Shown here one piece after another: positions 898-30,002 of a stretch of DNA of 64,000 nucleotides. The notes beneath the pieces are model-generated. The model saw nothing but the letters and a program-made list of their open reading frames with translations, ran no database searches and had not been told where the DNA came from. Origin of the DNA: Crateriforma conspicua (GTDB lineage: Bacteria > Planctomycetota > Planctomycetia > Pirellulales > Pirellulaceae). The stretch covers positions 868,001-932,000 of the forward strand of contig NZ_CP036319.1 of assembly GCF_007752935.1 (NCBI RefSeq), written 5' to 3'. How positions within the stretch are numbered: the first letter of the stretch is position 1; each line of letters begins with the position of its first letter. The position numbers were made by a program, and so were the translations under genes.

Positions 898-2223
898 TTA
901 TGCGGCCCGGCGTCGTGGTGTGGCCGCGGTCTCCAGGTGTTTCAAGATCACCGGGTCGGCATTGTCGGTGCCGGATGTTTCTGTTTTTGGCGACCAAGTC
1001 ATGCCCAGCCAACGTCCCAGTGCGGACTGTCGGACCACCGCTTCGTAGGTCAGCAGGGAAACCGACAATGCGGCCAGGAAACAGAAGACTCCCTTCACCA
1101 GCGAAGGAACTTGCGGCAACAGAAATTTGGTGTCGATGTGCATCAGGCCCAACAAGGGGTGGTGGACCAGGTAGATCCAGAACGACGCGGCTGCCACGTA
1201 CTGTGTTTTTTTCGATATCGGACGTTCTTGTGCCTGAAAGAAGCCGATCGCTGCCAAGCTAACGGCCCATGCGGCCAGCGTGGTGGTGGTCCCCAGCAAG
1301 ATGCCCGATGCCTGGGACATCGCCGTGTCGGGCTGGTGTCCGGCCAGATGCCAGCGGCCGACGGCCACCGCGGCACCAAGCGACATCACGGCGGTAATCA
1401 CCAGCGGCCGCGTCAACGTCTGAATCCGGTGCAAGCGTTTGTCTTGACTGACAATCCACATGCCGCCCAAGAAGAACGTTCCGCTGTAAATCCATTTACT
1501 GGGGACCGGCAAGAAATCATGTTGAAAGCCCCAGACCACTTCCGGACGAAAACACAGCGTGCAGATTCCGATTCCCGCCAAAAGAATCAATGCGACACGT
1601 GAGCCAAACGGTTGTTGGATGAATCGATACCGCTTTTCGGCGGGGTTTCGCTGCATCCACGTTGCGATGCCGGCAACGATGCCGACGTAAGACAACACGT
1701 ACAGCAAGAACCAAAGGTGACTGGTGCCCCACAGGCTGTTGCCCAGTGCACCATCAATCTTCAGGCTTTTCAGTTTGACCGCATCGACCCAGCCCTCGTA
1801 CACCCAGCCGCCGACCCAGATATAAAGCTCCGCCGGCAGAATCACCATCATCCCGAACAGGAACGGCTTGCCCAATCGCGACAAACGCGTCCGCATTAAG
1901 TCGGCGGCACCGCGTCGCTGCAGTGTCTGCCACGCGAACATGCCGGTCATCACCAGGAACACCGGCATGATGAAGACTTCGATGGCCCAAAACGTGACGT
2001 CCAGCCACTCGCTTGGAGTGTCGCGAACGGGCCAGGCCAGTCCCGGCATCGGGTGCTTCAGATAGGGAACGCATGCGTGAAGCAGGACCACGCCCAGCGT
2101 TGCCATGACGCGCAAACGCTCCAATCCTCCGTGTCGTGGTTTTCCGGCAACCGTGCCAGGATCCGCGGACCGGAAGGGGACGGAATCGACGTTTCGAGAC
2201 GCATCGATGGATAGGACCTTCAT
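898..2223 (-). CDS. Acyltransferase family 3 membrane protein
   Basis: Predicted integral membrane O-acyltransferase of the acyltransferase-3 family (441 aa), which transfers acetyl or similar groups to surface polysaccharides or lipids. The N-terminal block 'LERLRVMATLGVVLLHA' is the family signature (Arg and an early His in the first membrane helix). About ten hydrophobic helices follow, including 'PVFLVMTGMFAW' and the late 'FWIYLVHHPLLG' helix with the His-His pair typical of the family. The first ~30 residues are charged and soluble. Substrate cannot be told from sequence. It lies downstream of the ExoD-like gene on the same strand with 119 bases between. A second family member with an ankyrin insert lies at 28383-30002. 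Confidence 0.85.
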   Translation of the reverse strand: MKVLSIDASRNVDSVPFRSADPGTVAGKPRHGGLERLRVMATLGVVLLHACVPYLKHPMPGLAWPVRDTPSEWLDVTFWAIEVFIMPVFLVMTGMFAWQTLQRRGAADLMRTRLSRLGKPFLFGMMVILPAELYIWVGGWVYEGWVDAVKLKSLKIDGALGNSLWGTSHLWFLLYVLSYVGIVAGIATWMQRNPAEKRYRFIQQPFGSRVALILLAGIGICTLCFRPEVVWGFQHDFLPVPSKWIYSGTFFLGGMWIVSQDKRLHRIQTLTRPLVITAVMSLGAAVAVGRWHLAGHQPDTAMSQASGILLGTTTTLAAWAVSLAAIGFFQAQERPISKKTQYVAAASFWIYLVHHPLLGLMHIDTKFLLPQVPSLVKGVFCFLAALSVSLLTYEAVVRQSALGRWLGMTWSPKTETSGTDNADPVILKHLETAATPRRRAA

Positions 2224-28382: not shown

Positions 28383-30002
28383 CTAGGACGAGCCTGACGA
28401 CGCAATCTTTGCTTCCACCACCGCATCCGTTTCCGGTGCTGTGTCGATCAAGATCGCATCAGTGTGATCGTGCGTAGGCCGGTGTCGTCCCGGTCGCACC
28501 CGTTTGCCGTTTAGCAGTGTTCCGATGGGTGTGTACCGAACCAGGTGCTGGTAACTGATCAGCAAGACCGCGGAAGTCACGACGCAAATGATCGGCAGTT
28601 TGATGTAGGGCGATAAGTCCCAATCGCGGACCCACGCCTGGACCAACAAGATGACCGGCATGTGGGCGACGTACAGCCAATACGATGAATCGGACAGATA
28701 TCGCATCGCGGGGCTGTGGGTGTCGCAATAGCGACGAAACAGTCCCATCATTCCGATCGACATCAACCAAGCATATCCGGCTTGGCATAACAGACCGACC
28801 ATGCGATGCGTCTGGTTTCCGGATCCGCCCCAGGTTAGCCCGACAGGAAACAAAATGGCTAACGAAACCAGCAACATCGCCGGCCAGTGCCGCGACAATC
28901 GGCCCGGCGTGTCATTGACGCGGTAATAAAACGCGCCGAAGAAAAAGAACACGGCGTAATAGGCAAGCACGACCGGCAATGGCAGCAAGCCGATCGACGT
29001 GTCGGGACCGAATTGGCCCGCATTGCTTTTCATGGACGCTTGCAGGAGCGCGGTGACCGGCACCACCAGCGCGATCACCCAAAACGCTGATGCCGCCCAC
29101 GTCGTCGGCAACTTCAATGGCAGATGTCGATAGACCCACACACTGATCACAAATCCGACGACTAGAAAACACAGGAACCACAAAAACCATAGATGCAGAA
29201 ACACGGGTACGAAAAACAAGGCGGCCAACAATGCTTGCCATGTCTCCTTTGCTTGGTCGGCTGATCCCGCTGGCGTTGCTATGTCGTCAGACTTTTCGGG
29301 AATCCACTGGGCGATTTTCTCGCGCCCGGCTTGCACAGCTTCCTGCTTCACAGGTGCTTTGACAAAGCCGGCGATCATTTTGGTCAGTGACCAAGGTGCC
29401 TGCATCACATTCGCCGGAGTCTCTCCCTTGTAGTTCGCCAAGGTCGGGTCGGCACCATTGCGGATCAAGACCTCCGCGACATCGTCACGCCCCAGGAATG
29501 CGGCCAACAGAAAGGGTGTCGCGCCGTCATCGGACCGTGCGTTAACGTCATGGCCGTCGTCGATCAACGCCTGGACGCGGTCGGGCTGGTCCATGATCAC
29601 GGCCGCCCAAAGGTTGTCGGCGCTGGCGTTGGCATCGGCGGGTTGCTGGACAAACGCCGAGACGATCCACACCGACGGGATGATGGTGATTAAACCCAAA
29701 ACCAAAGGTAGAAAAATCCGCCGGAATCGATGCCACAACAACGCCGGGATGCCGCGTCGTCGAAGCAACATCATTGTGAAAAAACCGCTGATCAGAAAAA
29801 ACAGCGGCATGCGAAAGCCATGAATCATCGACAGAACGACGCCGAATCCGTCGGCCTGCCGACTGTCTTGCACCGCCCAGCCCGAGGCCACCGGCAAGAA
29901 TGAAATCATGCCGTGCAACACAATGCCCAGCAGCATCGCAACGGCTCGCAAAGCATCCAGATCATGTCGCCGCGGATCGGAAAGGACGGTGGCTTTCGAC
30001 AT
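28383..30002 (-). CDS. Acyltransferase family 3 protein with internal ankyrin-repeat insert
   Basis: 539 aa from the ATG at 30002 (an upstream in-frame ATG at 30146 adds residues before the family start). 'DLDALRAVAMLLGIVLHG' at ~14-31 is the acyltransferase-3 signature, and about ten membrane helices follow. Between the third and fourth helix regions (~128-200; plus-strand positions 29403-29621) there are two ankyrin-type repeats ('QALIDDGHDVNARSDDGATP', 'VLIRNGADPTLANYKGETP'), then an Ala/Lys-rich linker. Both parts are uninterrupted in one frame. The enzyme part acylates envelope sugars or lipids; the ankyrin part may bind a partner on the side where this loop lies. Confidence 0.85.
   Translation of the reverse strand: MSKATVLSDPRRHDLDALRAVAMLLGIVLHGMISFLPVASGWAVQDSRQADGFGVVLSMIHGFRMPLFFLISGFFTMMLLRRRGIPALLWHRFRRIFLPLVLGLITIIPSVWIVSAFVQQPADANASADNLWAAVIMDQPDRVQALIDDGHDVNARSDDGATPFLLAAFLGRDDVAEVLIRNGADPTLANYKGETPANVMQAPWSLTKMIAGFVKAPVKQEAVQAGREKIAQWIPEKSDDIATPAGSADQAKETWQALLAALFFVPVFLHLWFLWFLCFLVVGFVISVWVYRHLPLKLPTTWAASAFWVIALVVPVTALLQASMKSNAGQFGPDTSIGLLPLPVVLAYYAVFFFFGAFYYRVNDTPGRLSRHWPAMLLVSLAILFPVGLTWGGSGNQTHRMVGLLCQAGYAWLMSIGMMGLFRRYCDTHSPAMRYLSDSSYWLYVAHMPVILLVQAWVRDWDLSPYIKLPIICVVTSAVLLISYQHLVRYTPIGTLLNGKRVRPGRHRPTHDHTDAILIDTAPETDAVVEAKIASSGSS

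What the first reader, a model, noticed from the sequence alone, without database searches (positions are those of the whole stretch)
29403..29621. Ankyrin repeats inside a membrane acyltransferase-3
Two ankyrin-like repeats interrupt the membrane helices of an acyltransferase-3 in a single frame, followed by a Lys/Ala/Ser linker. Acyltransferase-3 fusions usually add domains at the C-terminus (SGNH), not in a loop. The insert could bind a carrier protein or polysaccharide partner.
Basis: partly seen in the sequence, partly recalled or inferred. Interest (0 to 1): 0.65.

Follow-up and report, generated by a model that had tools for sequence, protein, structure and literature searches.

The report
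Ankyrin-loop acyltransferase-3 family of planctomycetes
A membrane enzyme that passes acyl groups out of the cell carries a protein-binding ankyrin domain in one of its outer loops, and the same layout recurs in many Planctomycetota bacteria, which suggests a new way for such enzymes to choose their targets.

Summary
Window 28383-30002 (minus strand) encodes one 539-aa acyltransferase-3 (AT3) protein whose TMH3-TMH4 loop (residues 118-261) holds ankyrin repeats. It is no frameshift: an ortholog 93% identical has the same layout, and 65 non-identical core rows from Planctomycetota carry Ank in this loop. Both folds form in an AlphaFold model (AT3 part like human HGSNAT, Z 15.3; insert like ankyrin/DARPins, Z 12-13). 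The 'Lys/Ala/Ser linker' is mostly a conserved helical cap of the Ank domain; only 237-261 behaves as free linker (dN/dS 0.98, against 0.06 for Ank+cap). The loop is predicted extracytoplasmic. In three genomes of one clade the Ank domain sits instead at the N-terminus, behind a signal-peptide-like sequence and ahead of three hydrophobic stretches, and the loop is short: the domain is kept, apparently outside, in another position. AT3 motifs are intact. Best reading: a transmembrane acyltransferase whose outer Ank domain docks a partner or acceptor protein over the acyl-CoA pore. Partner and substrate are unknown; OPG succinylation (the MdoC role) is not supported as the general function. The four AT3 papers searched do not contain 'ankyrin'. 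New variant of a known kind.

The parts
28383..30002 (-). whole gene, 539 aa: acyltransferase-3 with ankyrin domain in the TMH3-TMH4 loop
   Evidence: single ORF, ATG at 30002; Pfam AT3 + Ank; ortholog L018 93% identical
29652..29978 (-). AT3 core, N part (TMH1-TMH3, residues 9-117)
   Evidence: Pfam 13-125; dN/dS 0.027 against L018
29913..29957 (-). DxxR-x10-H motif, D16 R19 H30
   Evidence: invariant in 11 aligned members; motif defined in passages of PMC9833829 and PMC12423673
29718..29729 (-). RxxR motif, R92 and R95, cytoplasmic end of TMH3
   Evidence: both invariant in 11 aligned members; motif from a PMC9833829 passage
29220..29651 (-). loop insert, residues 118-261, predicted extracytoplasmic
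   Evidence: positive-inside count on helix limits set by me; loop TMH3-TMH4 is periplasmic in OafB
29409..29612 (-). ankyrin repeats, residues 131-198
   Evidence: Pfam; AlphaFold model and matches to ankyrin/DARPin structures, Z 12-13
29295..29408 (-). conserved C-terminal cap of the ankyrin domain, residues 199-236
   Evidence: cap HMM hit (E under 0.01) in 52 of 65 loop-Ank rows; helices 204-213 and 220-231; dN/dS of 131-236 is 0.061
29220..29294 (-). true linker, residues 237-261
   Evidence: pLDDT under 50 at 237-259; dN/dS 0.98 over 25 codons
28488..29219 (-). AT3 core, C part (TMH4-TMH10, residues 262-505)
   Evidence: second stretch of PF01757; fold match to HGSNAT over 9-499
28671..28685 (-). 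SxxxY motif of TMH9, S440 and Y444
   Evidence: Y444 invariant in 11 aligned members, S440 in 9 of 11; motif from a PMC12423673 passage

Best explanation
An integral-membrane AT3 enzyme takes acyl-CoA from the cytoplasm into its ten-helix pore and passes the acyl group to an acceptor outside. The ankyrin+cap domain, held in the extracytoplasmic TMH3-TMH4 loop beside the mouth of the pore, is a docking module that recruits a protein (the acceptor itself, or a protein that carries or presents the acceptor). In working it resembles the Ank domain of the eukaryotic zDHHC17 acyltransferase, which recruits protein substrates. Shown by sequence: one frame, both domains, intact AT3 motifs, selection on the Ank module. 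Inferred from a model and the positive-inside rule: the fold and the outside location. Inferred only: that it docks a protein. Unknown: acyl group, acceptor and partner.
For: Both folds predicted. D16, R19, H30, R92, R95, G356 and Y444 invariant in 11 of 11 aligned members. 65 non-identical rows with Ank in the same loop, insert 145-435 aa (median 193), against 26-46 aa in 19 Ank-less AT3 rows. Ank+cap dN/dS 0.061, lower than the C core (0.177), linker 0.98. Ank+cap duplicated as a unit in L024 and L037. In L155, L168 and L169 the Ank domain sits at the N-terminus behind a signal-peptide-like stretch, with three hydrophobic stretches before the AT3 core (an odd number, as needed to put the AT3 N-terminus inside), and 58-61 aa lie between the two AT3 core matches. 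Ank+cap relatives occur in other proteins that look exported: a PQQ-propeller-type neighbour in L150 and a small protein with signal- and TM-like ends, L106.
Against: No partner identified; neighbours are not conserved family-wide. Residues conserved in the repeats are largely those of any ankyrin repeat (as recalled); the less usual F169 (49 of 65) and R172 (41 of 65) recur in most of the seven sequences from non-AT3 or N-terminal-Ank proteins (F in 6, R in 4), so no AT3-specific binding face is evident. 13 of 65 rows lack a cap hit, and of the three N-terminal-Ank proteins only L155 has one. One member of the clade (L063, G486) has no Ank at all, so the AT3 core can do without it. The fold evidence is one model; the second (L012, single sequence) failed (pLDDT 48). 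The third hydrophobic stretch of the N-terminal type is long and may be two helices, which would spoil the parity.
Confidence: 0.5

Rival explanations
1. The Ank domain is a lid or clamp that itself holds the glycan acceptor over the pore, taking the place that the SGNH domain has in OafB, with no protein partner.
For: The insert sits in a loop that helps delimit the pore at its periplasmic side in OafB; the AT3 acceptors in the review passages read are glycans or sugar-bearing.
Against: Ankyrin repeats usually bind proteins (general knowledge); no SGNH match in the insert; paralogs in one genome carry inserts of very different length (e.g. G101: L033 and L077).
Confidence: 0.2
2. The Ank domain is an assembly or anchoring module (binding other repeat proteins or the envelope scaffold) that places the enzyme rather than selecting its substrate.
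For: Neighbour genes with Ank repeats in L139, L150 and L175; LRR genes just upstream in L155, L168 and L169; protein kinases just upstream in L146, L147, L148, L158 and L164 (Pfam run on L139, L175, L155 and L146, the rest by BLAST cluster or my HMMs).
Against: These neighbours occur in few of the 50 anchored stretches.
Confidence: 0.2
3. It is the osmoregulated-periplasmic-glucan succinyltransferase (MdoC/OpgC) of planctomycetes with a decorative insert.
For: The best NCBIfam match is MdoC (135.8 bits), and the window's own genome has MdoG/OpgG.
Against: The MdoC match is far under its cut-off of 338 bits. Of 39 Ank-AT3 genomes 4 have MdoG; of the 157 others 22 do (Fisher p 0.79): no association, and 35 genomes have Ank-AT3 with no MdoG found (some genomes are incomplete).
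Confidence: 0.08
4. Frameshift, assembly chimera or decaying gene.
For: None for the window gene. Among relatives L044 is split over two frames and some, such as L023, L028 and L035, have stops inside their match.
Against: Same layout in dozens of separate assemblies; dN/dS 0.146 for the whole gene.
Confidence: 0.02

Closest known systems
Acyltransferase-3 family / TmAT superfamily (PF01757; OafB, Oac, OatA)
   Same: Ten-helix core, DxxR-x10-H, RxxR, TMH6 Gly and TMH9 SxxxY; extracytoplasmic TMH3-TMH4 loop, long in OafB and Oac too
   Different: Loop filled by an Ank+cap domain; no SGNH domain and no eleventh helix
MdoC/OpgC glucan succinyltransferase
   Same: Nearest NCBIfam model (135.8 bits)
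   Different: Well under the cut-off (338 bits); has the Ank insert; presence does not follow MdoG
Human HGSNAT and CASD1 (TmAT with an extra outer domain)
   Same: HGSNAT is the closest solved fold for the membrane part (Z 15.3, 297 residues, 13% identity); both carry a second domain besides the TmAT core, luminal in HGSNAT and N-terminal SGNH in CASD1
   Different: Their extra domains are not ankyrin and lie outside the membrane core (that HGSNAT's is N-terminal is recalled)
zDHHC17/zDHHC13 (HIP14) S-acyltransferases
   Same: Membrane acyltransferase with an Ank domain that recruits protein substrates (PMC5655499, abstract); functional analogy only
   Different: Unrelated catalytic family, Ank N-terminal and cytosolic (both recalled); here it is in an outer loop

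Membership tests
Acyltransferase-3 (PF01757) | profile match over the curated cut-off | tested here: met
   114.7 bits against 31
Acyltransferase-3 (PF01757) | DxxR-x10-H in TMH1, RxxR at TMH3, SxxxY in TMH9 | tested here: met
   D16, R19, H30; R92, R95; S440, Y444 read from the sequence; all but S440 invariant in 11 members; motifs taken
Acyltransferase-3 (PF01757) | ten-helix TmAT fold | tested here: met
   model matches HGSNAT, Z 15.3, rmsd 5.1, 297 residues over 9-499; one model only
Acyltransferase-3 (PF01757) | acyl transfer to an extracytoplasmic acceptor | not testable with these tools
   needs biochemistry
Ankyrin repeat (PF00023 and relatives) | profile match and helix-pair fold | tested here: met
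   33.9 bits against 21.1; Z 12-13 to ankyrin/DARPin structures over about 126-245
AT3-SGNH fusion (OafA/OafB/OatA type) | C-terminal SGNH domain behind an eleventh helix | tested here: not met
   no SGNH match in Pfam at E up to 1; only 53 residues follow the last helix by my limits
MdoC/OpgC (NF003014) | score over the equivalog cut-off | tested here: not met
   135.8 bits against 338
MdoC/OpgC (NF003014) | occurs with OPG synthesis (MdoG, PF04349) | tested here: not met
   4 of 39 Ank-AT3 genomes have MdoG against 22 of 157 others; the own genome does have it

The most novel reading that the evidence does not exclude
These are protein-acylating AT3 enzymes: the extracytoplasmic Ank domain binds a short motif or domain in exported planctomycete proteins (as zDHHC17 does for its own clients), so that acyl-CoA-driven acylation of specific envelope proteins takes place outside the membrane, with the number of Ank modules setting the client range.
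Probability: 0.2. Interest if true: 0.8.

Novelty: new variant of a known kind. Interest (0 to 1): 0.52.

Why it matters
How an AT3 enzyme finds its acceptor outside the membrane is an open question; the passages I read discuss SGNH and alanine-racemase partners. A family spread over Planctomycetota that keeps a selected, apparently exported protein-binding domain at the pore mouth, and in one clade has it at another exported position, gives a handle on that question: the Ank+cap domain should be small and soluble, hence usable as bait.

Tried and rejected
Frameshift or chimera: rejected, since the same layout recurs in many assemblies. MdoC/OpgC function: not supported in general. Conserved operon: 51 stretches of up to 22.5 kb taken, 50 with an anchor; no partner common to the family. 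The commonest other gene clusters, in 14 and 12 of the 51 stretches, look like DUF1501 and PSCyt-type exported proteins (names recalled, not run); they are abundant in this phylum (recalled) and I saw no fixed place.

Single origin of the Ank insert: the clade of 65 loop-Ank, 3 N-terminal-Ank and 1 Ank-less (L063) rows has support 100/99, and L063 sits inside it (98/82), but AU tests do not reject the trees that hold the 68 Ank rows together without L063 (p 0.219) or the 65 loop rows apart from the N-terminal ones (p 0.205). So one gain, one relocation and one loss is the simplest reading, not a proven one; the place of the N-terminal clade is weak (55/89). The first, quick tree was replaced by the careful one. 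Rows left out: identical cores, L044 (split frame), L067 and L086 (C part too short), loci without both core parts. L081 and L082 were first labelled Ank-less because those stretches were cut; the longer L168 and L169 show the N-terminal Ank.

Counts: one search scored at most 7 and at most 3 candidates of a genome, so I repeated both with the C core alone (residues 262-505), where every listed genome had all its candidates scored. Relatives: 43 of 196 match at 1e-18: the same 39 Ank-AT3 genomes (36 loop type, 3 N-terminal type; 38 checked in fetched sequence, G153 only from the match table), fragments in G057 and G125 that were not counted, and G025 and G067 with short frames (463 and 420 aa) that I read as Ank-less. 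Phylum sample: 23 of 392 at 1e-20; 17 hold loop Ank, G486 is Ank-less inside the clade, and G298, G471, G527, G530 and G565 show no Ank hit (G471 was cut and is not in the tree); one search gives 19 of 392 at 1e-18: the same 17, G486 and G298.

Other phyla could not be searched by genome. A peptide-pattern scan of the 84,980-species collection gave 11 loci, all Planctomycetota by title, but finds close relatives only. Plasmids gave 31 records, none with 80% of the query in one place; viral contigs gave one weak hit. Foldseek's 50 rows shown are all ankyrin/DARPin-type or DARPin complexes and fusions, none at E under 0.001. The structure of L012 from its single sequence failed. Literature: searches for the combination showed no paper on Ank in AT3; only the listings were seen apart from the papers named in this report, and one search returned nothing, the family name having been read without its underscores. 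Searches were on OpgC topology and a periplasmic AnkB, listings only. Most subscription journals are not in that library.

Full report
What is there. The window carries on its minus strand, 28383-30002, one ORF of 539 codons from an ATG. Pfam finds Acyl_transf_3 (6e-33, two stretches) and ankyrin repeats over their cut-offs between them. The reported span 29403-29621 is residues 128-200. The insert proper runs from the end of TMH3 to the start of TMH4, residues 118-261 (29220-29651).

Fold. An AlphaFold2 model from 11 family members has mean pLDDT 76 and pTM 0.68; ten-residue blocks over 131-230 lie at 72-95, and 237-259 is under 50. A second look at Foldseek's candidates aligns the membrane part with human HGSNAT (8vkj, Z 15.3, rmsd 5.1, 297 residues over 9-499) and about 126-245 with ankyrin and DARPin structures (Z 12.3-13.0, rmsd mostly 2 to 3). 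That tool warns that Z under about 13 can be chance for helical repeats; here sequence profiles say the same. Foldseek by itself gave only weak matches, all of the ankyrin/DARPin kind in the 50 rows shown (E over 0.001). A second model, of L012 from one sequence, failed.

Catalytic core. The residues that the AT3 and TmAT papers name (DxxR-x10-H, RxxR, a TMH6 Gly, SxxxY; passages of PMC9833829 and of PMC12423673) are present as D16, R19, H30, R92, R95, G356, S440 and Y444; all but S440 (9 of 11) are invariant across 11 members. So the enzyme is probably active.

Side of the membrane. With ten helices, putative cytoplasmic segments hold 3, 6, 2, 2, 3 and 7 Lys/Arg, and the outer ones 1, 1, 0 and 1 apart from the 143-residue insert, which holds 12 Lys/Arg and 21 Asp/Glu (helix limits set by me from hydropathy and the model). 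TMH3-TMH4 is a long periplasmic loop in OafB and Oac. The insert is therefore predicted to be extracytoplasmic, beside the acceptor end of the pore.

The family. Of 196 relatives, 39 have an Ank-AT3 (the same 39 when all candidates were scored with the C core alone; 38 checked in sequence). In a sample of 392 genomes of the phylum, 17 hold loop Ank, the window's own genome among them. Among 65 non-identical core rows the loop is 145-435 aa long (median 193), against 26-46 aa in 19 Ank-less AT3 rows; a strict single-repeat HMM counts 1 repeat in 14 rows, 2 in 39, 3 in 5, 4 in 5 and 5 in 2. Presence is patchy, as of an accessory gene. Eight of the 196 hold two paralogs (G003, G006, G068, G069, G071, G101, G174, G183); in all but G071 both members were read in sequence and have Ank.

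The 'linker' is mostly a cap. After the repeats comes a conserved stretch (cap HMM in 52 of 65 rows; T207 in 39, A211 in 53, R227 in 55 of 65), mostly helical in the model. In L024 and L037 repeats and cap are duplicated together, which marks Ank+cap as the unit. Against the ortholog L018 dN/dS is 0.027 (N core), 0.061 (131-236), 0.98 (linker 237-261, 25 codons) and 0.177 (C core): the Ank module is under strong selection, the linker is not seen to be.

A natural experiment. In L155, L168 and L169 (genomes G109, G033, G084; one clade, support 100/100) the AT3 loop has no Ank (58-61 aa between the core matches). Instead the protein begins with a signal-peptide-like stretch, then Ank repeats and a cap-like stretch (a cap HMM hit in L155 only), then three hydrophobic stretches, then AT3 (signal peptides judged by eye and hydropathy, no dedicated program). 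Export of the N-terminus plus three helices puts the AT3 N-terminus in the cytoplasm as usual and the Ank domain outside. That the domain is kept outside in a different position is the strongest sign that an exported Ank domain matters to the enzyme. The third stretch is long and could be two helices, which would spoil the parity. The tree nests this clade among the loop-Ank rows, but weakly (55/89), and an AU test does not reject the alternative (p 0.205). A precedent for an outer domain at either end: SGNH is C-terminal in OafB and N-terminal in CASD1.

Relatives of the module. The same Ank+cap type occurs in L107 (two modules), L108 (weak cap hit), L150 (PQQ-propeller-type neighbour of an Ank-AT3; its relative L139 has Ank without a cap hit) and L106, a 219-aa frame with signal- and TM-like ends. 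It looks like a module of exported planctomycete proteins that was taken into an AT3 loop; the direction is inference.

Function. MdoC is the nearest NCBIfam model but the score is far under its cut-off. The own genome has MdoG, but across 196 relatives Ank-AT3 and MdoG are not associated: 4 of 39 against 22 of 157, Fisher p 0.79. Neighbourhoods show partners in a few stretches only: a protein kinase upstream in five, an LRR gene upstream in three, a PQQ-type gene beside it in three (two of them with Ank). I therefore favour a docking role for a protein partner or acceptor, by analogy with zDHHC17, whose Ank domain recruits substrates (PMC5655499, outline and abstract). That analogy concerns working, not descent.

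Known or new. PMC9558356, PMC7448272, PMC12423673 and PMC9833829 hold no occurrence of 'ankyrin' in the main text (passages read, not the whole texts). They name AT3-only, AT3-SGNH and AT3-alanine racemase forms, and PMC9833829 says that fusions to other domains exist in Eukarya. Library searches showed no paper on the combination. Automatic domain databases may well list it; I could not check. Hence a new variant of a known kind.

Noticed in passing
window 898-2223, minus strand (L001): A second AT3 gene in the window, 441 aa, without Ank; its PF01757 match (91.9 bits) is better than either piece of the Ank-AT3 (65.9 and 55.3) in the genome search.
   Followed up: partly
L085, L086, L087, L088: Another set of planctomycete AT3 proteins in which the match to the C core is broken by 123-148 residues, apparently around the TMH7-TMH8 loop.
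   Followed up: no
L106 (G024:C295): A 219-aa frame with a signal-like start, Ank repeats, the same cap and a C-terminal hydrophobic stretch: a free-standing version of the module.
   Followed up: partly
L139 5981-7822, L150 10606-12465: A PQQ/BamB-like propeller gene with C-terminal Ank repeats lies directly beside the Ank-AT3 gene; L151 has the same kind of neighbour without Ank.
   Followed up: partly
G000:C1:6668876-6670372 (L176, L182): MdoG/OpgG, the periplasmic-glucan gene, is in the window's genome and in 26 of 196 genomes searched (its own included), of interest for planctomycete osmoadaptation.
   Followed up: partly
L181 4278-5435 (G486): An Ank-less AT3 that falls inside the Ank-AT3 clade, a possible loss of the insert.
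   Followed up: partly
G000:C1:242531 and 283245; 304492 and 7115951: Two pairs of Ank genes in the own genome with equal scores and frame lengths within each pair, probably recent duplicates.
   Followed up: no
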